Both the position numbers and the translations under genes were made by a program. A model generated the notes under the pieces. It was given only the letters and a program-made list of their open reading frames with translations. It ran no database searches and was not told the origin of the DNA. From contig OU862920.1 of NCBI GenBank assembly GCA_917880885.1, positions 1,798,001 through 1,862,000 on the forward strand: DNA of 64,000 nucleotides, written 5' to 3'. Of this stretch, positions 13,310 through 53,710 are shown piece by piece; positions within the stretch are counted from its first letter, which is position 1, and each line of letters starts with the position of its first letter. This stretch comes from Limnephilus marmoratus (taxonomy: Eukaryota > Arthropoda > Insecta > Trichoptera > Limnephilidae).

Positions 13310-14125
13310 TTAGTAACTATTTATTTTTTTTAGTAACCACATATTTATTTTTTTTACATTTTTATATGAAACGTTTAGGAATATACACAAAATAGAAATT
13401 ATATTCGTAGTCCTCCTCATTAGGCCATCCTGTACTGAGGGGGACTATGCTTTGGATAAGTTTTCAGCGACTTCTATGGTTTAACTTCATGGTTTGGATA
13501 AGGTTTTCCAGAAACTTCTACGGCAATGTCTTAAGTATACAAGAAAGTTCATTTTCCGATAGTTCCTTCAGCCACCTTTTAATGTCCTTAATGTAGCTAT
13601 TTGTGTTTTAATTTGTTTGATACTAAGTGGGAGTTTGTTAAATAATTTTACTGCTAAATATTCAGAACTTTTTTGTCCAAACGAAGAGTTACACTTTGGT
13701 GTATTAAGTATGTCTGTTTGTTTGGCTCTGGTTTTAAGAGCATGTGAGGTGTCTGCCTCTGAATCATTTTTGTGGTGATATACTTGAATGTTTTTGGCAT
13801 AGATTTTCTGTATGCTTGGAACATCAAACCGTTTAAAAATTTCTGTTGACGTCCTTATGGGGACCTTTAGTAAGGTCTTTATGATGCAATTCTGAGTTAC
13901 CTTCAGTTGTTTTATGTGTTTATAAAAAAAATATATTTATTATATTCGAAAAAATATAGTGAATATGAAATATTATAATTAATTAGCTGCAATATGAAAT
14001 ATTATAAATAATTAGAAATTTGTAAACTTAAATGTACAAATTACTAAAATAAATTATTATTATTATTATGTTTAGATGCTGCTGAGCCCCATCCTATTAC
14101 TCCATATTCACTATGTTTCGCCCTA
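13310..14125 (-). mobile_element. Jockey/CR1-like LINE 3' portion, family E
   Basis: Minus-strand translation gives an RT thumb-like region: YMLSCLYRAKHSEYGVMGWG, then after an interruption KVTQNCIIKTLLKVPIRTST and SSEYLAVKLFNKLPLSIK. The 3' UTR holds the conserved hairpin at 13406-13449 and an A/T-rich tail near 13310-13380. Bases of about 13920-14070 are an AT-rich insertion that splits the coding part. The 31.3 kb element is a sister copy in the opposite direction. Confidence 0.7.
13406..13449 (-). promoter_or_regulatory. LINE 3' UTR hairpin (copy E)
   Basis: On the plus strand, CGTAGTCCTCCTCA pairs with TGAGGGGGACTATG around the loop TTAGGCCATCCTGTA. The loop has the TAGG...CCTG signature of the six other hairpins in the window. 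It lies between the RT coding remnant and the tail, where RT recognition structures are known in other LINEs. Confidence 0.7.
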
Positions 14126-15354
14126 TACAAGCATGAAAGCATATAAAACATTTTGAATTTTTTTAACTAATGAATCACTTCATGGGGGTATCACCAAATA
14201 TGTGGTGTGGTAAATGCATTCTTAATACCAGAGTCCGAAAATATGATTATTGGTTAACGAAATTTTTAGATAAAATATTTGTTTCTAACGTTTTAGGTTA
14301 TTTAATTAGATTTATTTTTGGTTATTTATTGTTATATTTCGGTTCTCGAATCGAACTATCTTTTTTTTAATAAATTACATTGTTTATCACAAATTTTCTC
14401 CACATTAGGTTTAAATACACCCCACAGTTGGATTACATGTTCTTGATTGATGTATTAGAAGCTTTACCGTCCAGCTAGTATACAACGAAACACTGTACGA
14501 GGTTTTGTTTCGGAATGGTGGTCTACAGAGCAATACTTAAATAGTCAATAGTTATACCAATTACTAATTGTTTCTTCGAACAGCCCATATATAAGATGCA
14601 TCGATTTCCACACCTGGCATGATGGTACATCGGTAAACATATTAAATAGATTACCTTTTTGTGTGAGTGGTAAGAGATGCCGTTTCCTCATTAGCTCTCC
14701 TCATACTTTGACCTTAATTGTGAAAGCTTAACAAACACGTGCTTCAACTCCAGCAATAGCTCGTGATCGATTAGGGAAAATCTTCGTGTTAAAACCAGTT
14801 TGATGCGAAAATATCCGGTTTCCCGATGGCTACCTCTACCTGCCCGCCTTAATTATACCCAGGACCTAAGTCGTACAGTTTTCGGATCAAAGAACCTCCT
14901 GGTACCATTGTTTGACATCTTGAAAAAGCGCCGAATCTCAACTACCAATAGTTTATGCACATTTTAGATGTTTCTAATTATCTCTTTTTTTATAAATCGT
15001 GAACAAAATTTCCTCCGAATTCACAAGATTTGTGAGATGCTACTTAAAAACCAATCCAACTAATTATAAATCACAATATATTTTAAGTAATATTTTTTAA
15101 ATTTCAAATAAGAAATTATACAATTTGTACAAATAAACGTCACTATCTCAAAGATAATCCTTTTTTTTTCAAATTTTCTTCAGTGCATCGGTACCAAGAT
15201 ATTGAAAACATGCGAATAAGAATGTCCAAATAAACGTGACGATTTTAGATCTGAAGAAAGAATCTTTACTGAACCACTAGGACACCATCTTCAACCGGAC
15301 ACGGAACGTACACACTAATTTAGAGACAGACGAAATGCAAGACGATTGAGTTCT
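14126..15354. other. intergenic, no gene supported
   Basis: AT-rich sequence. A short frame at 14170-14370 has no recognisable feature. Bases 14610-14960 look like degraded repeat material, but I cannot match them to another copy here. Confidence 0.4.
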
Positions 15355-15475
15355 TTCTAATTTCTATTTTTATTTATTTATTTAGTACAAGGTTATACAC
15401 GTACCTACATAATTTATGATGTGTTTTGACTGCCCAACTAGGATGATTCCCGTTTTAGGACAGTCAACTTAAAAC
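15355..15475 (-). mobile_element. LINE 3' tail with conserved hairpin (copy G)
   Basis: A TTTATTTATTTATTTAG tract at 15368-15384 is the complement of a (TAAA)n tail. It is followed by the hairpin at 15426-15467 (TTGACTG...CAGTCAA, loop with CTAGGATGATTCC). Polarity matches the other minus-strand LINE ends. Little coding sequence is recognisable upstream. Confidence 0.55.
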
Positions 15476-15599
15476 TTAGTTAAAACTGCACTTGGCAAAG
15501 CAAAATCAAAATGGAAAAAAAAACTAATAGTTTCTATATCAAAGAGGTACCGACATAATAATTCATAATAATTAAAAAAAATCATACCTCCGTATTTTA

Positions 15600-15893
15600 A
15601 TACGGGAAAATTGGAAAAAAAATATGCATCTATGGAAAATTCAAATCGTCACTAAAAACTTTCCTTATAAACTAATGTCATTTCACTTTAAGTGAATACG
15701 TCACATAAATGAAATATCTATTTTTGTATATTTATATTTTCTTATTTCCATTAACATTTTAATATTCTTCTTTGTAAAAACATAATAATATAACATGTAT
15801 GTGGTTAGCTGGAAGAAATGGGGTCTACCTATAAGCTACACCTTTTGTATTTTTTATTTGTAATAAATACTTTTTTGATTTTGATTTTGAATC
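15600..15893 (+). mobile_element. CR1/Jockey-like LINE 3' end, family K
   Basis: The sequence parallels 3170-3460 in the opposite direction: coding end AATTCAAATCGTCACTAAA, stop region, UTR with GTGGTTAGCTGGAAGAAATG, and a TTTTTGATTTTGATTTTGA tail. The pair defines the family and its simple-repeat tail. Confidence 0.75.
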
Positions 15894-16727
15894 GTGGCTC
15901 CCTTATCAGGCACAAGGGCTACTCTTTTTTGAGAAGGTATACATGATTAAAAACGACCTTTAATTTAATATTTTGAAAAATATGTATATGTACAAATATA
16001 CTATAACTAATATTTTTTACATTACAATAAAAAAATGACATCCCGTGATTTTTAAGTGTAAATATTCCTTATCAGTAAGCACTTACACTTGTAAATAAGA
16101 AAACTATAACTCTTCACGTGGGAGAAGGTAAATGAGTGTTATGAATCCTTACAAAGTTGTTTTCGGAAGACTGAAATACCGCATTTTCTATTATGGTGTA
16201 ATGAATTTTCCGTGAGTAACAAAATAGTAATATTTTTTCAATTAAATTCGCTTTGTATTTAGAGTGCACGCGTGGAACTTCCCGCGGGATAATAAAGTCA
16301 AGTAAAGGTCAGGGGCCCCGATGTGCGTGTTAATTGTTCATTTAAAACTGATCGCTCGCGCTGGAACCAGTAAGGTAAGGAGCCTCAATCTTTGAGTGCC
16401 CAACTCTGTTATATAAACACTATCGACAATTGTTGCCTCTCATTGTGGTGAGATAATTTTAATGCATGGACTTATGTTGGTAAATAGGTTATTTCGTTGC
16501 ATATATCTTAAGGATTTCCAAGCACCAAATTGCATTAACCTTTCAAGCTAATTTTTTCGATTTTCGGAAAAACTCAAACAGGTCTCATAGAAATCGTTGT
16601 GTCTCTCTGACTTTCATAGTGAGAAATGATCCAAACGGTATTAGAAACAGAAAACATCCATCTATATATTAAAATATAAAAGATAATCTATAAAAATATT
16701 TAAAATGTAGGTACAGCTTTATAGAAA
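15894..16727. other. intergenic, nothing recognised
   Basis: Mostly unique-looking sequence, with a GC-richer patch at about 16260-16400. No exon with supported splice sites and no repeat match was seen. Confidence 0.45.
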
Positions 16728-18210
16728 AAAGTAGTGACCGACCGAAGGTTCGGTTTCGAATTGGGCAAGTTTCGGCATCAGTTTCGGTTTCGGCAGAAAA
16801 ACTGCCGAATCTTCGGCCGCACCTAGACTCTGCGTTCGTGAATTAATGCGCGTCGAGTGAGATAATGGCTCTAGTGTCACCAGCCATCATCAGCAAAATA
16901 CCCAATTAATGAGGTCCTTCCTTTATAATTTAAATGTTAAATATTGACAATTTTTTGTTCAAAGAAGTAGTTAACATGTTTGATAATTTTTGTTTGTTTT
17001 ATAGCAGTAATATCAAAAAAATAAATAATTATTTTTTCACACTTCAATTATTATTTTATATTTCATTTAAAACGTGTTATAAGAATGTTGTGATTGAAAA
17101 CCCAATTAAAATTAAAATACTCAATTAATGAGGTCCTTCTTTTATAATGTTGTTAGTGTTGATTATTGACAAATTTTTGTTCCCAAAGTAATTTTCAAAT
17201 ATTTTTTTTTTTGTTTTATAGCAGTAACATAAGAAATATATACATATACAGCTGATCCGACAAACGTTGTTCTGCCATATAAATTATTTCTAGTGAATAT
17301 TTTGGTTGTTAAATAAAAAAATATATGTATCGTAAGTGTGTGGGGAAGGGATCTACGGCAGAAAGAGGAATGGAGCGCTGTAGACGATGAACGGCGAAAA
17401 AAAATCACCAACCATTAATTTTCTCATTTCATTGCATTTTATTAAAGTAATGAACATATTCATTGTTTGGTCTCATAAAACTAAAATATAAAGTAAAAAA
17501 GTAATACATTTTTTATCCTGAAGTAGGAAAATGATATAAAGAAAATCAATATTAATTTCGAAGAGCAATTGAGTGTACGATATTTTTTGTCAGTCCGTCT
17601 TTAGCCAACAAAAATAAGCTCGATGGTTTACCCACGCGAGAACGTGATGCCGAATGAAATATCAAAATGACGCGACGCTTCTTGTGAAAGTCTTGCGCAT
17701 GTGTGTTGAAACAACATAAATAATTTCGTTCTGTTTGAAATACGAACGACGACGGTTAAATTTGTTCATACAAAAATAGTGAAATTGCGATTTAAAATGG
17801 GATGGGATGAGAATTTGGGGTTAAAGATATTTTTTGATGCCAAATGAAGAAAAATACAAAAAAAAAATGTCAAAAAAATGGAAAAAAATGTCTGGTTAGG
17901 GACACCCTTAAAAATTTCTTAAAAATCGGTCAAGTCGGTTAGGAGGAGTGCGACCACAAACACCGTGACAAGAGATTTTTATATATAAGATTATTTTTTT
18001 CACATACTTCAATTATTGTTTTTTATTTCATTTAACACGTGTTAACTGTGTGTATAAGTGAAAAAATTGCCAAATTTCAGTAAACAATAGATTTTTAACA
18101 TATCTAAAATAGTTTCGATTTCGGTTTCGGCCCAAACTGTGACAGATACCAAAGATTCGGTTTCGGTTTCGTAAGAAAGTCCGGTTTCACAAAAATTTCC
18201 GACCCTGAAA
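16728..18210. mobile_element. composite element with TTTCGG-rich ends and internal direct repeats
   Basis: Both ends carry clusters of GGTTTCGG-like words (16735-16825 and 18110-18205), suggesting subterminal repeats of one element. Inside, a block starting CAATTAATGAGGTCCTTC occurs at about 16902 and 17124. The second copy is split by the element at 17249-17990, after which its sequence resumes (CACATACTTCAATTATTG). No transposase frame was seen. Confidence 0.6.
17249..17990 (+). mobile_element. element P-related insertion (subfamily GTTGTTCTGCC)
   Basis: It begins CAGCTGATCCGACAAACGTT followed by GTTCTGCCATATAAATTATT, and ends GACCACAAACACCGTGAC, then GAGATTTTTATATATAAGAT. The same ends bound the shorter copy at 38.09-38.51 kb. 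It interrupts the second direct repeat of the composite element, and the uninterrupted first repeat serves as a paralogous empty site. Confidence 0.7.
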
Positions 18211-18820
18211 AAATTATAAAACTTCGTTACCAGTAATTTTAGTTAGAAAAAAAAAGTGAGCCATTTTAAAAATTTTTCAAGTTTAGGTACATAGATTTTT
18301 TTTATATTTAAAAAATTACATGTTTATTAAAGGGAAAACTTCTTTAGCACCGCTGTGATTTGAAACTCAATGAAACGAAAACGAGCGACACTAAGAAGAG
18401 ACAAACACGTACATTTATAGGATTTGGCCTGCGAGACAATGAGGTAGACTAATCGATCTCCTCTTTGTGCGATGCTTCGTAGCCTCCCCACTCTTGTCTA
18501 CTTTAGTTTTCTGTAGGTTTTACTTCTGCCGCGTGTGAACTGCACACATTTTTAAAATAATAATATTTGAAGGAGCGTATCATCACCTTTCAAAAACAGT
18601 TTTGAGATACGTTAAATAATATTCTACTTATTTGGATTTTATTGCAAAGTGAAAATATTCTGACCTACTGACAGAATATCGTCGAGGTCTGAGGTCTGAG
18701 GGGTCACAATTTTCTAATTTAGTCGTGTACGCACTAGACAGAAAAACAAAAACAAAAATATTCTGTATCCCGAAGCACTTCAATAAACAGATTTAAAACA
18801 CAAACGCTTTTTTTTCTTTG

Positions 18821-19150
18821 AATGGCATTGCAATACGCGCCCGGTACTCGCTAGTAGTTAATATTTGCCAAATGGAGTGACATTGCAACACGTGCCGGGT
18901 ACTCACTAGTAGTTAATATTTGCCAAATGGAGTGACATTACAACCCTTTCCGGGTACTCGCTAGTAGTTAATATTTGCCAAATGGAGTGACATTGCAACA
19001 CGTGCCGGGTTCTCGCTAGCAGTTAATATTTGCCAAATGGAGTGACATTGCAACACGTGCCGGGTACTCGCTAGTAGTTAATATTTGTCAAATGGAGTGA
19101 GATTGCAACACGTGCCGGGTACTCGCTAGAGGTTAATATTTGCCAAATGG
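18821..19150. repeat. 55-bp minisatellite, six copies
   Basis: Exactly six units of 55 bp, each with CATTGCAACACGTGCCGGGT, then ACTCGCTAGTAGTTAATATT, then TGCCAAATGGAG. Point differences mark the individual units. The CGTGCCGGG...CTAGT core resembles the complement of the element P head (for example ATGTGCCGGGAACCAGCTAG at 24.27 kb). Confidence 0.92.
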
Positions 19151-19436
19151 ATGTTTCAATAAAACTCAGTCATTCATTATTTGTACATACTATTAGACAT
19201 CTATAAGCATACTCACACATACACACACACCTACCTGGTAATTACTAAATATACATACCATATATAAGACACTACAACGAAACATATCATAGGTACCCAC
19301 CATGTAAATATATCTGTAAATATTCTCACTATTATAATCAATGCACTGTTTGTTTGTACATAAATAAATAAAAAATAAAAAGAATCGAGTGCAGTTCACA
19401 CGCGAATGTAGTGAAATCTTCGCACACACATTCTCA

Positions 19437-19640
19437 ACCAATAGGAGCCTTGAAAAGTGAGGTCATAATCAAAGCTACCAATGAACGCAGTCTGAGGCTC
19501 CGTAGGTACCGTAATGCGTCATTTCCGTTTCATATCTCAACAATAGGAGCCTTGAAAAGTGAGGTCATAACTAAAGCGGCCAATGAGCGCAGTTTGATGC
19601 TTCGTAGGTAGCTACTGTGATGCGTCATTTCCGTTTTATC
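19437..19640. repeat. 107-bp direct duplication
   Basis: The block starting CAATAGGAGCCTTGAAAAGT occurs at 19439 and again at about 19546. Both copies continue through a CGTAGGTA block and TGCGTCATTTCCGTTT. Divergence is modest (small indels and substitutions). It lies in the right part of the family Q element. Confidence 0.85.
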
Positions 19641-19690
19641 CGAATTTGAAATTACGACGGGGCTAAAAATGTTTCACTTCAAAAAATAAA

Positions 19691-20084
19691 ATAATGTCAG
19701 CATACCGCATTGAATGAAATTAAACTACGTTGAGGTCACATATGAAACACAAATAATGCTTGGTTGGATGAAGAAACGTACTTACTCGAACATCCATCTA
19801 TTGTATTGTCAGGTGGTCACGGACATCATGATATCACTGAGGATTAGAACCTGCACCAAATTGATTTGCAACATTTTATTTAATGTTCTTTATAGACGTT
19901 CCAGAAGACATTACGTACGGACTAATTATTATTGTCATCGCCATACATCATCTCATTGGTAGTCGTGAATCAATTCACAATCACTAGTCAAATATTATTA
20001 TTTGGTAAACTAAAACTTGTTTAAATAATTATATTATTTTCTCGTGTGCAACAGTGGAATGCTTTCTTTATCTCTACATATTAT
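19691..20084. other. intergenic, nothing recognised
   Basis: A short open frame at 19714-19962 shows no domain. No repeat match was found. Confidence 0.4.
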
Positions 20085-20290
20085 AAATTAAAGTTCTCCG
20101 CCGCGTCTGTCTGTCTGTAAACGATAAACTCAGAAACTACTAAACGGATTATCATGCGGTTATCACTAATAGATAGAATGATTCTTAAGGAAGGCTTAGG
20201 AATATAATTTGTGTAAATATGTCGAAAAACATCTCTATAATATAGCGGACTCAACCGGCCAGGTAGAGGTACCAACAATACTTATTTATG
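20085..20290. mobile_element. degraded Helitron-like or element P-like fragment
   Basis: The text CCGCCGCGTCTGTCTGTCTG, CAGAAACTACTAAACGGATT, then ATCATGCGG resembles the conserved 3' blocks of dispersed Helitron-type repeats in insects (family knowledge). No terminal hairpin or CTRR end could be identified, so the class is uncertain. Confidence 0.35.
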
Positions 20291-20504
20291 CGTGTAGCTT
20301 AAATTTGTGATGGATCAAAGACGCAAACCTAAATTATGCCGACATAAATGTGATAAACGGATGAATCAACCATCTAGCGGTGAATTTGGAAAACCAAACG
20401 CATGTGTATGTATGTCAGTCGACGAAGTTGTATGTAAATTATTGTAAATGCGACGTGGCTATTAATTAATTTTCTTTCTATTTTCGCCATTTTGAAAAGG
20501 CGAT

Positions 20505-20550
20505 TGAAAACCACTAAAGGTCCATTTATATTAATAGAGACGACTTAAAT
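20505..20550 (+). mobile_element. Penelope-like element 3' scrap
   Basis: TTATATTAATAGAGACGACT matches ATTCATATTAATAGAGACGA at 60.63 kb, the last codons of the Penelope-like endonuclease domain. The segment is too short to say more. Confidence 0.35.
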
Positions 20551-22050: not shown

Positions 22051-22630
22051 AAAATGATAATTTAAAAAAAATCCAGTTCTAAGATTGCATAATGCATATT
22101 AACTCTCAGTACTTTCGCAAGTAATCTTCTAATAAATGTAATATCAATAGCAAATGAGGATAAAATGACTTCAACTCTAAAATTAGACAATGATCAGTAT
22201 TTTTATTGTTATGTCCTCTGCGTGCATAATCTTAATATGTCCCACTGTATTTATCTAAAGTGACCTGCCGTGTGAGTATCATTTCTGTATCCGTTGGAAC
22301 ATAATTAGAGAAACCCCAGGAAATGATACATATTTACGTTACGTAAGCGCCCTTGAGGTGAGTTTTCACAAAAACAACGCTATACAAAATATACTATTAC
22401 CGGAATTTTAGCACGACCGCGATCAGGATACCTTTGAATCAGAAACCTCGCATCAGTATAGTTAGATTCCGTTTCGGAGTTATTCGCTGTGGTGAGGCTA
22501 ATTTTGCTTCGCCCTTTGATGTTTCAAATAAACTTTGTGTAATTTACTTTGCGAAATACGGGACAGGAATTTCATAGCTGAGAACTTAGATTAATTATAT
22601 TAAAATTAAATTGGTCTATGTTCCAAAGGA
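22051..22630. other. intergenic, nothing recognised
   Basis: No coding signal. A short TGAGTTTTCACAAAAACAAC segment resembles one at 23.62 kb; its meaning is unclear. Confidence 0.4.
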
Positions 22631-30530: not shown

Positions 30531-30790
30531 GGGCGTTAAGGGACGTACTTAATTTTTTTTTTTTTGTTTATGTTTCTTTATTCTTTGAATTGTTCGTTAC
30601 ATTGATTGGGGATTTTTCGACCACCATACTAGGCACATGCCTGTGTTGTGGTAGTCGACAAGTTAACAAGTGATTTTTGGAATTATTGGGTTGACGGAGT
30701 TTACAAACCCAGATGTAATGAGATTTATAATACCGGCCACAACTGCATTTTTTCCTGAATTCCTGGAAAGACCCAAAACGCACAGACCAT
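30531..30790 (-). mobile_element. LINE 3' end with conserved hairpin (copy A), next to a mariner-like MITE end
   Basis: CAGGGCGTTAAGGGACGTAC at 30531 matches the terminal repeat of the MITE at 48.97 kb. A T-rich tract then serves as the complement of a poly-A tail, followed by the hairpin at 30618-30657. Upstream on the minus strand an open frame of about 70 codons has CSCGRYYKSHYIWVCKLR, which I do not recognise; it may be a LINE remnant. Confidence 0.5.
30618..30657 (-). promoter_or_regulatory. LINE 3' UTR hairpin (copy A)
   Basis: CGACCACCA pairs with TGTGGTAGTCG (one C/A mismatch) around CTAGGCACATGCCTGTGT. The loop signature is the same as in copies B-G, while the stem sequence is different. 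Confidence 0.75.
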
Positions 30791-31289: not shown

Positions 31290-31740
31290 AATCACCTCCC
31301 ATGCTCATAAAACCAGAGCCAAACAAACAGACATACTTGATATACCAAAGTGTAACTCTTCGTTTGAACAAAGACGTTCTGAATTTTTAGTAGTAAGGCT
31401 ATACATATAACCAACTCCCACTTAGTATCAACCAAATTAAAACAAAAAATAGGACATTAAATGTTGGCTGAAGGAACTATCAGAAAATGAACTTACTAGT
31501 ATACTTAAACATCGTCGTAGAAGTTTCTGGAAAACCTTATCCAAACCATGAAGTTAAACCATAGAAGTCGCTAAAAACTTATCCAAAGTATAGTCCCCCT
31601 CAGCACAGGATCTCCTAGTGAGGAGGACTACGAATATAATTTCTATTTTATATGGATACCTAACATCTTTCATATAAAAATGTAAGAAATAATAAATATT
31701 TAGTTACTAAATAACAAAATAATATATTTATTTATTACCG
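31290..31740 (+). mobile_element. Jockey/CR1-like LINE 3' end, family E sister copy
   Basis: The coding remnant has AAACAAACAGACATACTTGA, then a decayed SSFEQRRSEFLVVRL frame, parallel to the minus-strand copy at 13.6 kb. The 3' UTR shares CATGAAGTTAAACCATAGAA and the hairpin at 31590-31632. The end is AT-rich near 31700-31740. Confidence 0.7.
31590..31632 (+). promoter_or_regulatory. LINE 3' UTR hairpin (copy F)
   Basis: ATAGTCCCCCTCA pairs with TGAGGAGGACTAC around GCACAGGATCTCCTAG. In the element's sense strand this is the same orientation as copies A-E and G. Confidence 0.72.
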
Positions 31741-32990: not shown

Positions 32991-32994
32991 TGAT

Positions 32995-33480
32995 TTTTTT
33001 TTTACATTACCACACAGGAGTAGGCCCCGAGGAAAATGATTTCCCCTAGGGCCTATGTCATCTGGTATGCTGTGTGGAGGGCCTTTTTGAGGAGAAGAAG
33101 GAATGAACATTGATCTTGAAGAAACCCATGTTGAAGGAAGGTTAAAACACAGAGGCCCGCAAATCGTTCCATAGCCGTGCTATTTAACTAAAGAACGAGT
33201 CGAAGAAGCAGGCCGTTCACATGTGATAAATGTCAGTTGATAAATGTACACATGCGTTTCCCGACTATGCACCAGTGCCGAAGGGATCAATAACGCTAGT
33301 TCCTCGGAGCATCTTCCATTGAAATTCCGGTAAAACAAGGATAGCATTCCCGCCCGTGCTCTAAAGTTTGCAATCCGTTTGTTAAGGTATAAGAATCTAT
33401 CAAACTGACAGTCCGTTTCTACACAGAGTCGAGGGTTTTTTCAGGTGTTTTGGAGCTTCTGATCAAAGGTGGCTGGTATC
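32995..33480 (-). mobile_element. LINE family A 3' end, decayed copy
   Basis: The sequence parallels 62640-63130: tail TTTTTTTTACATTAC, CCTAGGGCCTATGTCATCTG, then GCTGTGTGGAGGGCCTTTTTGA and the coding end of the RT ORF on the minus strand. Frameshifts and small deletions disrupt the reading frame. It stops near 33480, just before the (TTTA)n tract. Confidence 0.8.
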
Positions 33481-33539: not shown

Positions 33540-34494
<955 letters not shown>

Positions 34495-34499
34495 TGGAA

Positions 34500-34698
34500 A
34501 CATTTCTACAAATTTTCTAATTTTTTTATAATTTTACTTTAAAATGTTTACATTTACTTGACTTCATTTCAAAATAACTATCCTCCATTGGTCACCATGA
34601 TACAGGCAGCTGCCTAGTTTGGTGACCTAATGTATCTTCTCAAGTAAATGTATTAATCATATTACATGTACTTATAAATAAAAAATAAATAAAAAAAA
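34500..34698 (+). mobile_element. LINE 3' tail with conserved hairpin (copy D)
   Basis: A short 3' UTR segment contains the hairpin at 34586-34632 and ends in ATAAATAAAAAATAAATAAA at about 34676-34695. Hairpin polarity and tail agree on a plus-strand element. No coding part is recognisable next to the microsatellite. Confidence 0.6.
34586..34632 (+). promoter_or_regulatory. LINE 3' UTR hairpin (copy D)
   Basis: CATTGGTCACCA pairs with TGGTGACCTAATG (one bulge) around GATACAGGCAGCTGCCTAG. It has the longest GC-containing perfect stem of the seven, with a stem sequence unlike the others. Confidence 0.78.
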
Positions 34699-39589: not shown

Positions 39590-39885
39590 TTTGATTTATT
39601 TATATATATGTATATATATTTATTCTTAATACACCTACATTACAAAGGTATAATATATTGTCCTCCACACTAGGAGTTCACCTGTGTTGTAGAGGACATT
39701 TTTCAGTTGTAAATTTTTACCTGAAAGTCACAATTAAGTTGCGCAAATTACTGGAAAGTCGCTTAAATACCTTTTTTCTTGTTTTAATCGCATTTGCGGT
39801 AATAAATAAAACAAGAGATTTCGAGAACGAAAAGGATTGCCAACTTGGAAGATTTTAATTCCCTATTTTTTTAAATCTAAATGTA
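39590..39885 (-). mobile_element. LINE 3' end with conserved hairpin (copy B), nested
   Basis: A T-rich start (TTTATTTATATATATG) is the complement of the tail, followed by the hairpin at 39660-39697. The rest (to about 39885) encodes nothing recognisable. It sits inside the MITE. Confidence 0.5.
39660..39697 (-). promoter_or_regulatory. LINE 3' UTR hairpin (copy B)
   Basis: GTCCTCCACA pairs with TGTAGAGGAC (one C/A mismatch) around CTAGGAGTTCACCTGTGT. The mismatch position is the same as in copy A, though the stem sequence differs. Confidence 0.75.
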
Positions 39886-41524: not shown

Positions 41525-41835
41525 ATTAACTCCACGCAGCAGATCCTGAGGAAAACAATTTCCCCTCAGGAGCTTTCAACATTGAAGATGTTATGTGGAG
41601 GATCTTTTTGAGGGAAGGAAGGAGTGCAGGGGGGAGGAAACACAGAGGCCTTCAAATCATTCCCCAGCCGCGCTGTTGAACTAAAGAACTAGTCAATCTA
41701 GTCATAGAATCGACCCGTTTTCATGTGACAAATTTCAACCGTGTAATGGGTGCGCTTTTGGCGTTTCGCGACTACGCATCGGTGACCTGAACGCTCTGCT
41801 GCGAAATTCACCAACAGTTTTGGCCCACACCGATG
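41525..41835 (-). mobile_element. LINE family A 3' end, strongly decayed
   Basis: TCCACGCAGCAGATCCTGAG, GAAAACAATTTCCCCTCAGG, then TTATGTGGAGGATCTTTTTG, GAAACACAGAGGCC, AATCATTCCCCAGCC and TGGCGTTTCGCGACTACGCA match 62650-62940. Many indels; the RT frame is lost. Confidence 0.75.
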
Positions 41836-44564: not shown

Positions 44565-45425
44565 TTATAGTTTTGTTATGTTTGGTTGGGGATTATAATG
44601 TTTTGTATAAAGTAAATTTTTAATCCAGGTAGTGATATGTTTTTTGTGAATATTTGTAGATGTATTTGCAGATAGTATTTGTTTCAAAGTAGTGTGCATA
44701 CAATTAAAAAGTTTGGTTGCATAATATTGAAAGTGTCTTTGTCCATGTGTGGTGTGTGTTATCGGTATGTTTAGTATTTTATTTATTGAGGACCTGGTTT
44801 TTATTATGGTTTTTAGTTGAATGGGTATATGTAGTTTGTTTTGGAGTAGGTGTAGTATAAAAGATTTGGCATAAAGTTGTGTGATTGACATGACTTCTAA
44901 TGTTTTGTAAATTTAGCTAGAATCTGTTTGAAATGGTACTTGCAAGATGAGTTTAATTATCGCTTTTTGTATTTTTTGAATAGGTTCAATTGCTATGTTT
45001 GTAGCACTTCCCCAAGCTAGTATTCCAAATGTGGCAATGGATTGACAAAGTGCGAAATAGATGGATCTTAGCATTGTATGTTGGAAGATGTTTTTAATGT
45101 ACTTTAATAGGTGCATGACTCGTTTGAGTTTATTTGTGATGAAAGTAATGTGTTCAGTCCAGCGTAAGTGTGAATCCTCCAGGTATTTTGTTTGTTTTGC
45201 TCTTTCTATAAGTTCGCACTGGCAGTTGGATGAAGTACAGTCATGTATAAGCAAGTCTAGGTTTGGTGGAGGTTGACCTCTTTGTGTAATTGTTTAGCCA
45301 TTTTTTTACAATTGATAAACTTTTTTCGGCTGTTATAAATACATCTTTCAGTGTGGCTGCTTGACAGAGAAAAACTGTATCGTCGGCAATATTGTCATAG
45401 TTTTATATTATTGCTTTATGTGTTT
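44565..45425 (-). mobile_element. Jockey/CR1-like LINE fragment, RT domain C-terminal half
   Basis: On the minus strand, frames give IADDTVFLCQA (the second half of the YADD catalytic box, with Tyr lost), then SHLRWTEHITFITNKLKRV, YFALCQSIATFGILAWGSA, and GQRHFQYYATKLFN near the C-terminus. Order and spacing are those of a LINE RT palm to thumb. Frameshifts occur near 44900 and 45260. The fragment at 53.34 kb shares the GQRNFRYFATKLYD segment. Confidence 0.75.
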
Positions 45426-45690: not shown

Positions 45691-47663
45691 TAAGGTGGTC
45701 CAGGCCTAAATAGTAAATTTTATTTTTTCAAATGTAGATGTAGCCACCCATTTTATTTGTTACACCTATCATTCCTATTACGGGTAAAAAATTTCAGCCC
45801 CCTATCTTATATACAAGGGGGTGCTCATCGAGTTAGAAGTTTCTGACAAAAGTTATGGATTTTAAGTAAAACACGTAATTTATGGTTTATTAATATTTCA
45901 AGTAATTTAGTCAAATAAGGATAAAACTATTTAAATTTGAACAAAATTTGGTAACAAAGCAATAATTAACATAATATTAGTCGCAATCTTTCAAAACCAT
46001 GTTTGTTAACTCCTTTTTGAATGTTTCAGTAGAAACGATTTTTCTGTTTTGTTTAACGATGTAAAGTAAAAATTGCTTTTGTTCCTCATTCTTAGTGAGT
46101 ATCGTGTTGTAATCTTCAAATAGTTTAACACCTCTCTCCGCTGAATCATTAACAACATGCAAATTTTTGACTCAGCTTTTGCCTTGAAGGTAATCAACAT
46201 TGTTAATCCAAGTCTCAGGAGGTAATTACAAGAAAGAGTCCTTGACATCAAGAACTAAGAGCGTTTTCAACGTTGTTTGTGTTGCAAAAGCTTCTAATGT
46301 AACCTCTGAGGCAAGCTTAGCAGAATCACCTCGTACTGAACGATTACTGCCATCAGAATTTATTTTTTGAACAATGGCCTGTTTCTCAGCGTCAGACAGC
46401 TTCTCAGTAAACAAGGTAAATGCGACTAGTTAATCTGACAAATACCATTAGTGACGCTCTAAGACACCCCTAGCTGCTACACTGATTTCGGAATCAATGA
46501 CTTCGGACAATTTTAAGCTATTCCAAAGTATTAAGTCATTTACAGGTGCATCTGCTGCCAAAGACGCTTCGATTCAAACTTTGGTGTAGATGATAACTTA
46601 CAAATCGAACAATTTGTTTTTCTTCTCTCTTGATTAGTTTAAATCTTGTTACGATCAAGCGCACTGGTAACGTATTGTGTAAATATGTCACTTGTAGACA
46701 ACTCAACGCACTACAAACCCATCTTTGGACTTATCCTCTAATATGCTAGCATTACTAGAAGTGCTACTGAAGCTGCACTCAAGTTCTAACTCTTGTCTCG
46801 ACACCACCGAAGATGAAGCATTACTTTCAGCAGCCATTTCTTTCAATTCTTCAGATCTTTGTTTCCGTTTTAGAGAACTTTCTTTGACCTTTTCTAGTTT
46901 TTTGTCAATTGAGGTCATAATCATCTTACGTTCTCATCTTTGATCGATGAGAAACACTCTGTCTTCCGTAATTTTGTATCAAATTCAAAGCGCTTGTATG
47001 GGCAATATCAAAAAGTTTGTCTAGTTCCTTTTTAAACAAATACTCTCCTTTTCTTTGTGCTTCAGAATTTCTTCCTCTATTTTTATTCAATAGCAGCCAG
47101 TTCATAAAAAACTTAATCAATTTTTCAATGCAGTGATTTTGTTGTCTGGTCGGAATACTAGATTTACTCCATACTTTTATAAGTTCTTGAATAAGTACAT
47201 GCGCGGAATCTTTCACGTTTTTGGAATCATTTAATATGTAGTGATATCGGAGTAAAACTTCCGAAGAGTAGGATGTTGGTTAAGCCTTATCAATGGCTCA
47301 ATATCTCGAACCCCAAGTAGAAAAATTTCGTATTTTTTTCGAGTAGATGAACACATTTTACTACACTGATTCACTTCACAGTCTACTAAATAAGTATCAA
47401 ATACTGTTCAAATTTGTCAATAAAACTCTTTAGTAGTTTATTTTAATATTTATTTAATAGTTTAACACACGAAACTGGCCTGTAGCAAAAAGTAAAAATT
47501 AAGCATTTTACACAAAAAATTCAAAAACAACACTCGATTGAGCACCCCTTTCTACATGAGCTATCTCGCTGAAATTTTACTATGTTATTTCTATGAATAC
47601 GTGTAACAAATTCACGTGGTGGCCAAATGAAAAATAATGAAAAAAAATTTTTGGACCACCTTA
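45691..47663 (-). mobile_element. DNA transposon with 8-bp target duplication and a decayed, uncharacterised protein
   Basis: Terminal inverted repeats TAAGGTGGTCCA / TGGACCACCTTA are flanked by perfect 8-mers ATATACAT (45683-45690 and 47664-47671). The minus strand holds the remains of one long ORF. N-terminal block 47290-46926: LIQELIKVWSKSSIPTRQQ, then KKELDKLFDIAHTSALNL. A second block at 46924-46703 has SIDKKLEKVKESSLKRKQR. A middle block at 46550-46226 has VAARGVLERH and FTEKLSDAEKQAIVQKI. C-terminal block 46190-45977: VVNDSAERGVKLFEDYN, then EEQKQFLLYIVKQNRK. The blocks resemble uncharacterised arthropod proteins that I recall but cannot name. An 8-bp duplication fits hAT-, P- or Mutator-like mechanisms, but no such catalytic motifs are seen. 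Stops and frameshifts show it is dead. Confidence 0.8.
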
Positions 47664-47671
47664 ATATACAT

Positions 47672-48962
47672 ACATACATATATTTGTTGAAGAATTTATA
47701 AAATACTTTCACATTTCTTCTGTATGTCTTTTTTCGTAGCGCCTTTATTTATTTATTGGCTCGCCAATGGAAAATATCACATCATAATATATTATTTGAT
47801 TAATAATCATTTTCAATTTGGTTAAAGCGATGTATCCAATTATAGGTGAGCTGACCGCTCATCTCTCTTACTTTATTCTTAGTATGACTACGGGTTGTAA
47901 TACATAATAATAAATCAAATTACAAGTAGGTACATCTTTGTATCCAAGTTATCGAAAAATAAACATTACAAAAGTCGCCTCCGATTCAAAAGTCGCCCCA
48001 TTTTACGGAACCCTTGTTCTCATTTAGTTTAATTATATTAAATGTGAGAAAAAACAGCAGAAGCGCCGGCCACCAAAAAGTCTTACCGGGTATTCTTCTT
48101 CTTGTTCCACGCGCCAAACTTTTCTCGTAAACTTTTTTACTTTGATAAAACAACACTAAACTTTGAAACTTTCGACGGTTGGATGAAAAACTATTGGAAA
48201 GCGTATCGTAAATCGATGTTTATGGATAACAACAATCAACACTAAAACATTTACTTTTTAAAAATTACAAGTTTAGTATGAAATCTATTTTTATTTTGTT
48301 TTGCGTTAATCCAAAGATACGAGAAAAAGCGGTGTAAGTAAAAATTGAATAATAAGTCACTTTGTTTTTTTTTTATATCGATTCGGTTAATGTCGATGAA
48401 ATCGATATGATAAGTGTAAGTTAATGTTGAATAATAAATCACTTTGTTTCTTATTTTATTTTTAAGTTTGTTATTTTGTATTAAGTTTTCGAAGTGTTTT
48501 GACTCTACAGGTTCTTGTTAACGCCAGGACATGATTGCAGTGCAGATTCGGTGGCAGACTCGCGACCGCGGCGGTTAGCACAGAACAGGAAACAAGCAAG
48601 TAGCCAAGAACGGTGAAAAGGCTCGACCACCCTCTTCCCCCGACTCCTCCCAGTGCCTCCCAGTGCCTCCCAACTCCCCACAACTTCCCACTCCCGCATG
48701 TACGGATCTGCCGCCCACGCATCCAGTAGCCATTGCTTGGTAAAGTCGACAGGTTGTACTGTGGCAACTGGCAACCAACCATCGTTACTACTTACTACCG
48801 CCACACATCACTGCATCGATACTTTTATTTATTTTAATTTTCAAGCCCAGTTGGCTTTTCCGTGTTTATTTTTTTAGGAAAAATTACACCTACATGTTCA
48901 CAACAATATAAAAACAAAATAACTTACAATGCATGAAGGATAAATAGTAGAATAGGAATTAA
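47672..48962. other. intergenic with small repeats
   Basis: TTTATTTATTTATTGGCTCG at 47746 is tail-plus-hairpin-like. An 80-bp direct duplication (AATAATAA-TCACTTTGTTT) occurs at about 48345 and 48430. A GC-rich patch at 48500-48800 with CCCAGTGCCTCCCA duplications has overlapping open frames but no domain or splice support. A LINE-like tail (TTTATTTATTTTAATTTTC) is at 48825. Confidence 0.45.
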
Positions 48963-48964
48963 TA

Positions 48965-49311
48965 CAGGGTGTTAATGGACGTACTTGACTTACTAATCAG
49001 TGATTCCTGACATTATTTGGAGTAAAAAAAATGTAAATAAAATTTTGTCTCCAGTGACATTTTTGGTGTTTTTTTTATTTTTGGTAGTTGTTGGACGTTG
49101 GAGGCAGGGTTAGGGGTTGGTCGGTTACTCGGCTGTGTGACCAGTGACGAATTGCAGAAGATTTTTTTTTCGTTGATTTTGGAGAAAAAAAAATTGAAAA
49201 AAAAGTCATCCAAAAAGTCACCGGAGACCAAAATTTTGTTAAAATTTTTTACTCCAAATAATTTCAGGAATCACTGGTTAAATTAAGTCAGGTACGTCCC
49301 TTAACACCTTT
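48965..49311. mobile_element. mariner-like MITE with long inverted ends
   Basis: Left end CAGGGTGTTAATGGACGTAC, right end the complement of GTACGTCCCTTAACACC, with TA on both sides. The inverted similarity continues inward for about 95 bp (CAGTGATTCCTGACATTATT, CTCCAGTGACATTTTTGG). TA target and CAGGGTGT start fit Tc1/mariner. A solo end occurs at 30531. Confidence 0.75.
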
Positions 49312-49364
49312 TATAAGGTTCATTTGTATATGGCGGGCGGCGTGGATTTGATTTGATTCTACAT

Positions 49365-50190
49365 TTTTTTTGCAAGGTTGTTGTTGGACATTTGACCTTC
49401 AAAACAAAGGCAAGATCACTATCTATATGAGATTTCGAAAAATAGCCACCTTCCTCTTTTTTACACACCTTAAAGCAGTATTTTTATACTTTTTATGTTG
49501 AAATATTGCAAAATAAAAGGAAAATTACTGTCTACATCTGATTTCGAAAAACTTTGCACAAAGCCCGGGTAACACCGGGGATATCAGCCGGGGTGTGGCT
49601 TTATTTTTCGTACAAATACACAGTTTTATTTCTAGATTGATGAAATTTAGCACATTTAACTTTTAAAATAAGATAAAGGTTAGGAACCGTTTAACTGAAA
49701 TTTCGAAAAACTACCCCATCCCTTTTTCCCATACTTTAAGCAAACTTTTAATACTACTGGGTAAAATTTTACAAATTGGGCTTTCAAAATTAGAGCAAAA
49801 TTACTGTCTATGTCTGATTTCGAAAACTAGGCGTAATGATCGGGCAACGCCGGGGATATCAATATATATTAATCCGAGATCTTCAATTATATCTATCAAT
49901 ATATATTCAATAAATCCGAGATCGATAAAATTTTCCACATTCGACTTTAAAAACAAGAGGAAGGTCACTGTTTATATGAGATTTAAAAAATACCACCCAT
50001 CCACTTTTCCCACCCAGTTCAGATACAACTCGATATTTTTTTTTTTACATTTGACGTTCAAAATAAGAGGAAAATTCCACTCCACATTTGATTTAGAAAA
50101 ATGCTGCATAAAACCCGGCAACTCTGGGGATGTCAGCTGTATAGACATCTTGTTTTTCATAGAAGTACAAACCAATGGTTTTATTTCGCG
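49365..50190. repeat. 275-bp tandem repeat, three diverged units
   Basis: The word CCGGGGATATCA, or a close variant, recurs at about 49575, 49850 and 50125, exactly 275 bp apart. Each unit also has TTACTGTCTA-GATTTCGAAAA, ACAAGAGGAAGGTCACT-like and CCCATCC-TTTTTCCCA-like blocks. Divergence between units is high. The CCGGGYAAC-CCGGGGATATC core looks like a variant of the element P terminus in reverse. Confidence 0.7.
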
Positions 50191-50440
50191 ATTGAGAGGC
50201 GGGAACGGGGTGACACAGCCCCAAGTCACACAAGGTGGTTCGATACGTTTGGTGACTTGGCAGGGTTGCCCGGGTACATGAGGTGAAGTTTGTCTGGATC
50301 TTGGCGTCGAATGTGTCTGCCATCCACTGCGTGTCGGGCCAGATCGGAAAATACTGGTTGGTGGAGACCTTTTAAGCTCTCAGGCCGCACTCCTTTGATC
50401 CATCCACTTGCACGCAGTCAGGAGAGACGGACGGACTCAT
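50191..50440 (+). mobile_element. family N copy, 5' body only
   Basis: GATTGAGAGGCGGGAACGGG, CCAAGTCACACAAGGTGGTT, GATACGTTTGGTGACTTGGC, then CTTGGCGTCGAATGTGTCTG and GGCCAGATCGG match the 25.96 kb copy. The 3' LINE-like tail is missing. It follows the 275-bp array directly. Confidence 0.65.
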
Positions 50441-50994
50441 CTATATATTTTTTTTATTTGTTTAAAAGCCCATGTGGCTTTTAAATAAATAGTACCTTTA
50501 CCAAAAGTACCTTCATCTCAGACACTATTAAGTCCAACGATACTGTTTTGAGCTGAATTTGTAGAAAATTTAATATCTATATACCTACTTTTTCTTCGAG
50601 GTAGAGCCCAAACTCGCTTACTCCTTGTAGTGCAAATCTTAACAAATAAAAATGAATATTTCTTTGCTTGATTGTTGTGCGCAACCTTAACCATTCTTTC
50701 GATTGCAATGAAACTTTGGCGATTTGTCGTGCGCATACCCGCAAAGGTTTCTGTATATAGTGCTAAGCTCTAGCGTTATACAATTATTTTTCCTATACCT
50801 TTCATCCGATTGCAATGAAACTTTGGTTATTTGTTGTGCGCGTGCCCTCAAAGGTTTCTGTGTGTAGTGCTGAGCTCTAGTGTTATAAAATTATTTCCTA
50901 TACCGTTCATCCGATTGCAATGAAACTTTGGTAAATTTTTGTGCGCACGCCCGCGAAGGGATCTATGTACATTGGTGAGCTCTGCCGTTTTTAA
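50441..50994. repeat. LINE-type hairpin tail and ~100-bp direct repeats
   Basis: A perfect hairpin TTTAAAAGCC-CATG-TGGCTTTTAAA lies at 50460-50485. Downstream, a block with ATTGCAATGAAACTTTGG recurs at about 50703, 50812 and 50917 together with AGGTTTCTGT and GAGCTCT words. These are three diverged repeats of roughly 105-110 bp, leading into the next element P copy. Confidence 0.65.
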
Positions 50995-51236
50995 ATTTGT
51001 ATAAAAAAAGCAAGAAGGAAAACGGGGAAGCTGGATGAGGAGGACGGGAGGTGGGAGGTAAGTACTTGAGGGGAGAAGGAAACGTAATGGGGGAAAGCGG
51101 GAGGGTGGAGGGGAAAGGGGGAAGATGGAGGGCATGGGGACGCAGAACGGGAAGGGAAGGCGGAAGGGGAACAGGGATGAATGGGAAAGGATACGCAGGG
51201 AGAAACAATTTATTTGCATGCCGGGAACTAGCTAGT
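50995..51236 (-). mobile_element. element P copy with purine-rich tract
   Basis: On the minus strand it begins CTAGCTAGTTCCCGGCATGC, then TTGTTTCTCCCTGCGTATCC and the pyrimidine tract (51010-51185 on this strand is purine-rich). The repeats at 50.7-50.99 kb may be its 3' side. Confidence 0.65.
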
Positions 51237-51374
51237 GGTAAATAAATTACAATCTTAACCGGTGTTAATGGCATATCAATTCTAATGGTGATGAAAATTA
51301 CATATTGTTATTCAAATTTAATTGGATAAATGTGCTCGTCTCTCTTTGCACAGCTCTGAAAATTGCACAGCTCG

Positions 51375-51562
51375 ATTTTAGCTCTACCTAGCATGGGTGG
51401 CAAGGGGCGGATAACATGGTGCCCCTCCCCCCATTAAAGTTGACAAAAGAAAATTTTGACTTCATAAAAAATTGGTCCGTCTTGGGAGGGGGGTGGCTAG
51501 AATTGTGCTCCCCCCCCCTTCCCCCCATCGGGGGCACCCCCCCCCCCCTCGCTACGCCTCTG
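51375..51562. mobile_element. hAT-like MITE with GTAGC ends and G/C runs
   Basis: AGCTCTACCTAGCATGGGTG GC-rich head and CCCTCGCTACGCCTCTG tail form a weak inverted pair (CAGAGGCGTAGCGAGGG in reverse). C runs and CCCCATT-like blocks lie between. It is related to the partial copy at 27.68 kb. A poly-T run follows at 51563-51587. Confidence 0.45.
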
Positions 51563-53199
51563 TTTTTTTTTTTTTTTTTTTTTTTTTAATTTGACGTAGA
51601 TACGGAAGTCTGTCGAGACCGAAAACTTCACCTCCATCATGAACAACCTAGCAAATAATAATAAAAAAATAAAACTAAATAAATTAAAAAAATAAAAACA
51701 CATAATATTAACACAAGAGTACACGAGTGGGCCACATATGTAGCCCAGGGTATTATTTTTGTTCATAATTTCGTGAAATCGCGTGATTTAACTTCGAGTC
51801 TCTAGCTAGGCTCCGATTAGTTGTTGCTCGACGCATTCAGTGTGGCGTGAGCGAGTGTGCTACGTGTTCCGCCAGTGCACGTTTGGGCTACATGAAATCT
51901 TGGAAAACTTGCTCGAAATGCTACAGGCGTATATGTAATGATTACCAAATTTTAATTTGACCTTATGTAATGATCACCAAATTTTAATTTTGTGCTTCGT
52001 GTAATGAAATTTTTTAAAAAAGTAAAAAAAAAATGTCAGAATTAAACCAAAAGTTGATTGATCTCAAATAATTAAAAATTATATGATTTTTTGAGAAGTC
52101 TGAAGTTTTGTTAATATTTTAAGTTTAAGAAAGAGAAGATATTTTTTTAACTTCGGTTTACTAAGTAAATGTCATTATGTTGAAAATACTAAAAAATTAA
52201 ACGATTATCTTTCAGTATATTTCAATTTAAAATGGGCTACAAGTGAAGCCCACGCGAGCACTCATGAACGTTTTAGAGGCGCGTGTACCGTAGTGTTAAC
52301 TACCCCATTTGACTTAAGGCGGGATGCTTAAAATTACTGTTCTATAATATATGTATAACATATATATTTAATGATATCTCCAGGTCCCTTGACATTTTCA
52401 ACATTAGTCTTGAACGTTTCAAGAGTAATTTTAGGCAAGAGCTCTAAAATATGTATTATTGTAATTTTATTTATGCAATCAGATGATGTGATACACAATA
52501 ATGTATTTATGTTGTATGTACAATGTACCTACATGTACGTAATCCAATCTAATATTCTATGTGTATTTTAATAGGATTATATTAATCTGTAATGCACAAA
52601 AAAAAAATTATAATGGATATCTCTTTTCGTGTATTTGGAATTGATGACCATTATTTTGTATTTCAATAATTATTTCATTTATTTAAGTTTATTAATCAAA
52701 TTGCATGCAATGGTTACTACGCGAAGTGTCTAAAACCTGTTGAAAATAATATTACAAATCTGTCCATTGAATTAAACGTAACTTCATGAATTGATTATTC
52801 GTTTTTACCTAAATGAAGTGCACTTTTGTTAATATCTTGATTAGATATTTTTTATCTTTACGCGCGAGCTGATTTATCTATATCTACATCATATATGTCG
52901 ATTGTCACGTTTACAAATTATTCGACCAAGGAAATAGCAAAAATATCTGTCTATATTCGCCAATGATTGACTTGTCGCATATAAATATATATTTTAAGTA
53001 GAGTCTCCACCGACCTCAACAAAAACAACATAAATAAAACCTCGAAAACATTTGCTTACACATCTTTTTTTTCTATCTCCTCCGTTGTGGCCACACACAT
53101 TTTGTCTAATAGTGGTTTGTGGTGAAGACTTGTCTACGTACTCAACACTCCAATTAATTACGGCTAGCTACATTTTAAATTATTATTTTTTATTATTAT
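51563..53199. other. intergenic, nothing recognised
   Basis: AT-rich. A direct repeat of about 30 bp (TGTAATGATTACCAAATTTT / TGTAATGATCACCAAATTTT) lies at 51932-51985. No gene or named element is supported. Confidence 0.4.
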
Positions 53200-53710
53200 C
53201 TTTATTTATTATGTTACATCAATGTATGTATAGGTGATTGTGCTGTGCCTGTCTCACTAGGAATTCCTGTGTTGAGAGCAGGCGCATTTTAGCGTAAATA
53301 GTTTAAACAAAAATAAGGATAACAACAACAATGTTATTTAAATTTAAAGTAAAAGTACAAGGACAATCAGCATCGTATCAATGGGAAAGAATGCATTTGG
53401 AGGTTCGAAAAATATTGTTAAAATATGATCTGTCTTTACTAGTGATCCAAACTTGGTATCTGATTTATATTTTACATAATTATTGGGCTGTCTAATGGTC
53501 AGTGGAAGTGTGTCATAAAGTTTTGTTGCAAAGTACCTGAAATTTCTTTGACCAAACATTGTTTTGGCAAAAGGGATAAGTTAGAGATTTTGCCCTTTGT
53601 TTCTCGTATCATGAACAGTTTGGATATTGTCAAAAATAGTTCTATGTTTGAATAGATGAATTAGTGTATTTTTGGCATAAAGTTGCTAAATTAAAACATA
53701 AAACATTGTT
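53200..53710 (-). mobile_element. Jockey/CR1-like LINE 3' end with conserved hairpin (copy C)
   Basis: Minus-strand coding remnant: QLYAKNTLIHLFKHRT, then MFGQRNFRYFATKLYDTLPL, TIRQPNNYVKYKS, matching the C-terminal RT region at 44.57-44.89 kb. The 3' UTR carries the hairpin at 53244-53286 and an AT-rich tail near 53175-53220. A frameshift separates the two coding pieces. Confidence 0.7.
53244..53286 (-). promoter_or_regulatory. LINE 3' UTR hairpin (copy C)
   Basis: TGTGCCTGTCTCA pairs with TTGAGAGCAGGCGCA (small bulge) around CTAGGAATTCCTGTG. The stem is the most GC-rich of the set, while the loop keeps the CTAGG...CCTG signature. Confidence 0.78.

What the first reader, a model, noticed from the sequence alone, without database searches (positions are those of the whole stretch)
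13406..53286. Covarying 3' UTR hairpin shared by at least seven LINE copies
Seven LINE 3' ends (13406, 15426, 30618, 31590, 34586, 39660, 53244) carry a stem-loop. The loop is nearly constant (CTAGG or TTAGG, 4-8 bases, CCTG), with a weak inner AGG/CCT pairing. The outer stems differ strongly between copies (GTCCTC, CGAC-ACCA, GCCTG-CTC, GGTCACCA, TTGACTG, TAGTCC-CCTCA), yet both sides changed together. That is compensatory covariation, the signature of a functional RNA structure. In copies A and B even a C/A mismatch keeps its position. Every hairpin has the same orientation relative to its tail, and in E, F and C relative to the RT coding remnant. The likely role is recognition by the element's RT, as known for other LINEs.
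Basis: partly seen in the sequence, partly recalled or inferred. Interest (0 to 1): 0.85.

Follow-up and report, generated by a model that had tools for sequence, protein, structure and literature searches.

The report
Shared bulged hairpin ending insect LINEs
Several different jumping genes (LINE retrotransposons) in an insect-like genome end in the same oddly bulged RNA hairpin, whose stem letters have been replaced in matched pairs, so it is almost certainly a working RNA tag, most likely the one by which each element's copying enzyme finds its own RNA.

Summary
The seven hairpins are real and far beyond chance. The exact core ACAGG-N4-8-CCTAGT occurs 5 times in the window (0.03 expected) and 24,158 times in the 1.63-Gb source genome, against 918 for the reversed pattern. 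Without one bulged A there is no excess: 3,159 sites against 3,329 control. The seven represent six families. A 300-kb genome sample gave six more hairpins: 13 copies, nine families after dropping kin. In the nine, 88.7% of stem cells pair, against 34-49% with the partner slid, and 9 of 16 pairs changed on both sides. AATAAA or eight A lies within 130 nt downstream in 12 of 13 copies, upstream in 2 of 13. Reverse-transcriptase C-terminal coding lies 121-441 nt upstream on the same strand in 6 of 13. The constant letters sit at an asymmetric internal loop with a bulged A; the apical loop varies, unlike ZfL2 elements, where the loop carries specificity. Best reading: the 3'-tail recognition element of a stringent-type LINE lineage, a new variant with a shared bulge code and drifting stems. 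Binding by the enzyme was not tested.

The parts
13405..13450 (-). 3' UTR hairpin, family A (variant core CCTAATG)
   Evidence: R1 47.7 bits, E 1.5e-10 at 13406-13450; fold z -3.07
13571..13936 (-). RT C-terminal coding remnant, 121 nt upstream of hairpin 13406
15424..15470 (-). 3' UTR hairpin, family B (variant core AACGGGA..TCCTAGTT)
   Evidence: R1 49.5 bits, E 5e-11; fold z -4.47
30615..30661 (-). 3' UTR hairpin, family C
   Evidence: R1 53.1 bits, E 5.5e-12; fold z -3.76
31294..31459 (+). RT C-terminal coding remnant, 129 nt upstream of hairpin 31590
31588..31632 (+). 3' UTR hairpin, family A (second copy)
   Evidence: R1 54.0 bits, E 3e-12; fold z -3.22
34585..34633 (+). 3' UTR hairpin, family D
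   Evidence: R1 49.0 bits, E 7e-11; fold z -3.79
39658..39699 (-). 3' UTR hairpin, family E
   Evidence: R1 46.2 bits, E 4e-10; fold z -4.42
53243..53287 (-). 3' UTR hairpin, family F
   Evidence: R1 45.1 bits, E 8e-10; fold z -4.11
53488..53685 (-). RT C-terminal coding remnant, 201 nt upstream of hairpin 53244
44568..45402 (-). related RT coding remnant behind which no hairpin was found

Best explanation
The hairpin is a cis-acting RNA element in the 3' UTR of a large group of LINE retrotransposons of the endonuclease/RT type, placed between the end of the RT reading frame and the A-rich (often TAAA-repeat) tail. Most likely the element's own protein grips the asymmetric internal loop and bulged A (conserved sequence ACAGG..CCUAGU) on top of an outer stem of about 9-12 bp whose sequence is free as long as it pairs, and so selects its own RNA and places the tail for target-primed reverse transcription. 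Shown here: the structure, its covariation, the bulge conservation, its place and orientation, its copy number. Inferred: binding by the element's protein and the role in priming.
For: Nine families: 88.7% of 141 stem cells paired, against 34.0-48.9% for six slid versions; covariation score 0.514 against 0.195 shuffled (0 of 500 shuffles reach it); 26 cells with a change on both sides against 8.6 (0 of 500); 9 of 16 pairs with such a change against 5.8 (11 of 500). Ten families and all 13 copies give the same picture. Genome: 24,158 exact cores against 918 for the reversed pattern; bulge-less form 3,159 sites against 3,329, no excess. AATAAA or eight A within 130 nt: downstream 12 of 13, upstream 2 of 13; random 130-nt pieces 4,614 of 19,864. 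RT coding on the same strand 121-441 nt upstream in 6 of 13 copies. 27 viral-contig stretches with an exact longer core score at most 23.2 bits with the model, against 45-54 for the window copies. RTs linked to three of the hairpin families share 41-44% amino-acid identity, so the core outlives much protein divergence. Published precedent: 3'-tail stem-loops bound by the ORF2 protein, bulge required in UnaL2 (PMC4176376 abstract, introduction and discussion; PMC5135761 passages and section 7).
Against: No binding or retrotransposition data. 7 of 13 hairpins have no RT coding within 2.5 kb upstream at E 1e-4 (5' truncation would explain this but was not shown case by case). L044 has no A-rich tail in the 130 nt after the hairpin, and three tails are only 12-13 A of 20. 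Of ten related RT C-termini by my reading, two (L036, window 44676) have no hairpin found behind them, and two (L048, L040:3775-5046) have a hairpin of another sequence, so the core is not universal in the group. The exact pairing inside the internal loop is ambiguous: a 3-nt 5' bulge plus bulged A, or a 4x2 internal loop, score alike. The outermost stem pairs are often broken. No partner SINE was found. For UnaL2 changed stem letters did lower retrotransposition (PMC4176376 discussion), which does not sit easily with a freely drifting stem.
Confidence: 0.8

Rival explanations
1. The hairpin serves RNA metabolism rather than enzyme recognition: it marks or protects the 3' end of the transcript (cleavage/polyadenylation, stability, export, or binding of a host protein).
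For: The A-richest stretch, often with AATAAA, starts 30-49 nt behind it in 10 of 13 copies, and structural conservation alone does not say which protein reads it.
Against: Related LINEs (L048, L040:3775-5046) carry other cores on stems at the same place, which suits an enzyme-specific code better than a general host signal; published LINE 3' stem-loops of similar layout are bound by the element's protein (PMC4176376).
Confidence: 0.12
2. It is a structural end of a DNA transposon-like or Helitron-like element, or a short palindromic repeat, and the LINE link is accidental.
For: Helitrons also end in a 3' hairpin (recalled); 7 of 13 copies show no coding nearby; a separate short palindromic repeat occurs near L040:1814-1880 and L057:4082-4116.
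Against: Same-strand RT coding upstream in 6 of 13, one-sided A-rich tail in 12 of 13, and a piece in L057 (4165-4225, 90% over 61 bp) that matches the 3' end of the 34586 family from the last bases of the hairpin on, as a 5'-truncated LINE copy would.
Confidence: 0.04
3. The seven likenesses are inherited from one recent ancestor or arise by chance, with no selection for structure.
For: 13406 and 31590 are one family; 34586 with L053:8776 (74% over 148 bp) and 53244 with L040:2061 (73% over 100 bp) are kin, and 15426 with L041 look so by their letters.
Against: With one of each kin pair dropped, the outer stems of nine families are unlike each other yet paired, and shuffling and sliding do not reproduce it; core far above chance.
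Confidence: 0.02

Closest known systems
3'-tail stem-loops of stringent-type L2-clade LINEs (UnaL2, ZfL2-1, ZfL2-2)
   Same: Stem-loop near the 3' end before the tail; a bulge in the stem; stems could be exchanged between ZfL2-1 and ZfL2-2 but not disrupted (PMC4176376 discussion; PMC5135761 section 7).
   Different: There the apical loop carries element specificity; here the apical loop varies in length (4-7) and sequence, and the constant letters sit at the internal loop and bulged A, shared by at least nine families. In UnaL2, unlike the drift seen here, changed stem letters lowered retrotransposition (PMC4176376 discussion).
R1-type SART1 3' UTR stem-loop of the silkworm
   Same: Insect LINE with a 3' UTR stem-loop reported as taking part in RT binding (PMC5135761 section 7).
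   Different: SART1 targets telomeric TTAGG repeats (PMC7265360, start of abstract in a search listing); nothing in the window points to telomere targeting, and TTAGG appears only on the antisense strand of one loop (13406).
Lepidopteran RTE and CR1B elements
   Same: Single-ORF endonuclease/RT LINEs of moths and butterflies with simple-sequence or polyA tails (PMC2887409, PMC1925062, passages).
   Different: 'hairpin', 'stem-loop' and 'secondary structure' do not occur in the main text of either paper; BmCR1B's 3' UTR is given as 53 bp. Whether the present elements belong to either clade was not tested.

Membership tests
Stringent-type LINE 3'-tail stem-loop (general kind) | Element encodes a non-LTR reverse transcriptase | tested here: met
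   RVT_1 in the three proteins checked, linked to hairpins L051, L053:1204 and L044; among the 120 listed relatives of L051 most are about 950-1000 aa and many carry Exo_endo_phos + RVT_1; L1 and R2 ORFs among solved structures
Stringent-type LINE 3'-tail stem-loop (general kind) | Stem-loop close to the 3' end, before the tail, in RNA orientation | tested here: met
   AATAAA or eight A downstream 12 of 13, upstream 2 of 13; coding upstream on the same strand in 6 of 13
Stringent-type LINE 3'-tail stem-loop (general kind) | Asymmetric bulge a few base pairs from the loop | tested here: met
   Bulged A 3-4 bp from the loop in 13 of 13; bulge-less form not enriched. The published distance is 4-6 bp (PMC5135761), so the match is close, not exact
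Stringent-type LINE 3'-tail stem-loop (general kind) | A partner SINE sharing the 3' tail | tested here: inconclusive
   None recognised, without a systematic search; no tRNA gene in the window (bacterial settings)
Stringent-type LINE 3'-tail stem-loop (general kind) | Element protein binds the stem-loop; mutation lowers retrotransposition | not testable with these tools
   needs binding and cell assays
L2 clade (UnaL2/ZfL2 type) | Specificity in the apical loop | tested here: not met
   By conservation only: apical loop varies in length and sequence among nine families, internal loop is nearly constant
L2 clade (UnaL2/ZfL2 type) | RT groups with L2 in a tree | not tested
   no named clade references were at hand
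Telomere-targeting SART1/R1 | Insertion in TTAGG telomeric repeats | tested here: not met
   window copies only: tandem repeat scan shows no TTAGG array in the window

The most novel reading that the evidence does not exclude
One internal-loop RNA code is held in common by many LINE families (at least nine sampled here) whose proteins have diverged to about 40% identity and whose stems have turned over fully, so that enzymes of one family could copy RNAs of the others: a shared ticket for mutual mobilisation across a whole retrotransposon guild, in contrast to the loop-based private codes of L2 elements.
Probability: 0.2. Interest if true: 0.75.

Novelty: new variant of a known kind. Interest (0 to 1): 0.6.

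Why it matters
How a LINE enzyme tells its own RNA from others is worked out for only a few elements. Here is a natural experiment with about 24,000 exact copies of one short motif: conserved bulge, drifting stem, several divergent enzymes. It makes the bulge-code idea directly testable, offers a covariance model for marking LINE 3' ends in related genomes, and could supply a compact RNA handle for target-primed insertion tools.

Tried and rejected
Rfam: no curated family covers the hairpins at E up to 1 (three weak matches elsewhere). A protein search with the window's 122-aa remnant found nothing; the 814-aa ORF of L051 did. Pfam found nothing in the one hairpin-linked window remnant scanned, 13571-13936. 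Viral contigs were scanned as an outside control: 27 stretches with the core; the model gives 26 matches up to E 5 in them, the two best (L003 E 0.0026, L023 E 0.0044) with a partial stem only; six alignments were looked at. A SINE origin for the coding-less copies was considered: the repeat shared by L040, L057, L045, L055, L032 and the window looks like a separate short palindromic repeat. A telomeric reading of TTAGG in the loop was dropped. Planned but not run because the genome search did not complete: counts for other bases at the bulge, and a 2x2 count of the closing outer pair across the genome. Nine paper searches gave no paper that I recognised as describing this hairpin; the library lacks most subscription journals, and searches used forms such as '3 utr' or '3 end' that may miss papers printing a prime sign. 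One count call failed for a wrong string length; one fold was placed on wrong coordinates of L048 and was redone. A first count of ten families was redone with nine, because 53244 and L040:2061 proved to be kin.
Full report
What is there. Seven hairpins at the stated coordinates were confirmed. Written on the RNA strand they read: outer stem, three bases (CAA, CAG, TGA or TAA), CAC-AGG or a variant, 4-6 nt, CCU-A-GUG or a variant, outer stem (alignment A1). RNA folding gives -18.5 to -21.5 kcal/mol, z -3.07 to -4.47 against shuffles. RNAalifold finds the same 16 pairs unaided, 8 of them with a change on both sides, and the count with controls agrees: 90.1% of 111 cells paired against 36-51% for slid partners, covariation 0.470 against 0.199 shuffled. 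A model built from the seven (R1) finds those seven and, apart from their opposite strands, nothing below E 0.29.

Chance. The exact core occurs 5 times in the window, 0.03 expected, 0 of 100 shuffles reaching 5. In the whole source genome (1,629,871,801 bases, 67 contigs; window = C30:1798001-1862000) it occurs 12,102 + 12,056 times; the pattern read backwards 452 + 466 times. The same pattern without the bulged A, which would be the plain perfect hairpin, occurs at 3,159 sites against 3,329 for its control (it is its own reverse complement, so both strands give the same sites). So the bulge is part of what is kept. These are the only two genome-wide counts that the machine answered.

New copies. 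A 200-kb sample from the first 190 kb of contigs C1 and C2 gave three hits, E 3.3e-06 to 1.7e-04; a 100-kb sample of ten scattered places gave three more, E 4.7e-04, 0.0023 and 0.038. The sample holds 2,500 N. A second model from all 13 (R2) finds the 13 at 36 bits or more and the next at 17 (the 13 match by construction). Six in 300 kb would mean some 33,000 in the genome, in keeping with the 24,158 exact cores (extrapolation from few hits; two of the six carry the exact core).

Covariation in independent families. Kin pairs are 13406/31590 (86.8% over 440 bp), 34586/L053:8776 (74% over 148 bp), 53244/L040:2061 (73% over 100 bp) and, by hairpin letters only, 15426/L041. One of each was dropped, leaving nine. 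On these: 88.7% of 141 cells paired, slid 34.0-48.9%; 26 cells with changes on both sides against 8.6 shuffled; covariation score 0.514 against 0.195; 0 of 500 shuffles reach these three. Pairs with double change 9 against 5.8, reached by 11 of 500; further pair types 23 against 16.2, reached by 1 of 500. Ten families, with L040 kept, gave 88.5%, 29 cells and 0.525; all 13 copies 88.3%, 39 cells and 0.525, though there the number of pairs with double change (10 against 7.5) was reached by 44 of 500 shuffles. The weakest pairs are the outermost (4 of 8 lettered rows unpaired at 4-46, 3 of 8 at 5-45), partly because bulges in single stems put them out of register. The internal region can be drawn as a 3-nt 5' bulge with CAC/GUG and a bulged A, or as a 4x2 internal loop with two more outer pairs; both score alike. 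The first keeps 10 of 13 at its variable pair 17-36, with three double changes, the second 8 of 13 at 14-36.

Link to LINEs. AATAAA or eight A lies within 130 nt downstream in 12 of 13 and upstream in 2 of 13; random pieces 4,614 of 19,864. The A-richest stretch starts 30-49 nt behind the hairpin in ten, 93 and 105 nt in two, and L044 has none. With four RT queries at E 1e-4, coding on the same strand lies 121-441 nt upstream of 6 of 13: window 13406, 31590 and 53244, and L044, L051 and L053:1204. For 39660 only a weak match 1.2 kb upstream was seen. L051 holds an 814-aa and L053 a 562-aa open frame with RVT_1. Between families the RT parts share 41-44% identity. Of 3,770 related proteins the best 120 were listed, mostly about 950-1000 aa, many with endonuclease and RT domains; the two listed with an organism come from Colias eurytheme and Plutella xylostella, hence the guess of a lepidopteran source. 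Taking the reverse view, I read ten related RT C-termini out of the 23 coding groups; groups whose matches stop short of the C-terminus and the 62702-type LINE were left out, and what follows those was not examined. Six of the ten have this hairpin behind them. L048 has a hairpin with another core (3034-3078). The LINE at L040:3775-5046 has a third hairpin at 5119 just before its tail. For L036 and window 44676 none was found.

How it likely works. In ZfL2 elements a region between endonuclease and RT binds the stem-loop, a conserved part reading the stem and a variable part the loop; a bulged nucleotide in UnaL2 is required, and there stem letters matter too (PMC4176376: abstract, introduction, discussion read). 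The general layout given for LINE 3' stem-loops is a loop of 5-7, a stem of 8-10 bp and a bulge 4-6 bp from the loop (PMC5135761: passages and section 7 read). The hairpin here comes close to that layout, but the constant letters are at the internal loop and bulged A while the apical loop is free. I therefore infer recognition by the element's own protein through the bulge, with the outer stem as a sequence-free handle, leading to target-primed reverse transcription at the tail. Position, polarity, covariation and bulge conservation are shown; the binding partner is inferred.

Novelty. The kind (3' stem-loop of stringent LINEs) is known. A code at the internal loop kept by at least nine families with replaced stems, about 24,000 exact copies in one genome, and sister LINEs with other cores at the same place, I did not find described in nine searches of the open library, which lacks most subscription papers; repeat databases were not at hand. 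I file it as a new variant of a known kind; clade membership was not tested.

Noticed in passing
window 62664-62700, 33017-33059, 41541-41574, 6309-6345, 7153-7185, 11494-11526; L048:3158: A second, plain hairpin class (GGCCCTGAGG ... CCTCAGGGCC and variants, no bulge) follows another LINE (RVT_1 ORF 62702-63694) and also ends shorter repeats, perhaps a LINE/SINE pair sharing a 3' end.
   Followed up: partly
L048:3034-3078 and L040:5119: Related LINEs carry hairpins with other cores at the same place; both fold with a 4-nt unpaired stretch on the 5' side, and L040's lies right before a TAAA tail: the architecture may be older than the core.
   Followed up: partly
window 10231-10400 and 56195-56395: Very long near-perfect inverted repeats (170 bp at 98.8%, 203 aligned bp at 88.7%); the first matches the mir-754 model below its gathering score.
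   Followed up: no
window 33540-34495: A 956-bp (TATT)n array ends about 90 bp before hairpin 34586; it may have grown from a LINE tail.
   Followed up: no
window 3975-4859: Fourteen near-identical copies of a 63-bp unit, open in three frames on the + strand.
   Followed up: no
G000:C1:1445061-1445337: Three hairpin cores spaced exactly 131 bp apart on one strand, as if a LINE 3' end had become a tandem repeat; letters could not be fetched.
   Followed up: no
L040:1814-1880, L057:4082-4116, L045:277-342, L055:5851-5891, L032:4940-4990, window 22346-22388: A short dispersed palindrome-like repeat (in L040 GCGCCGTTTTTGTGAAAAATCACCTCAAGGGCGC) at unrelated places.
   Followed up: no
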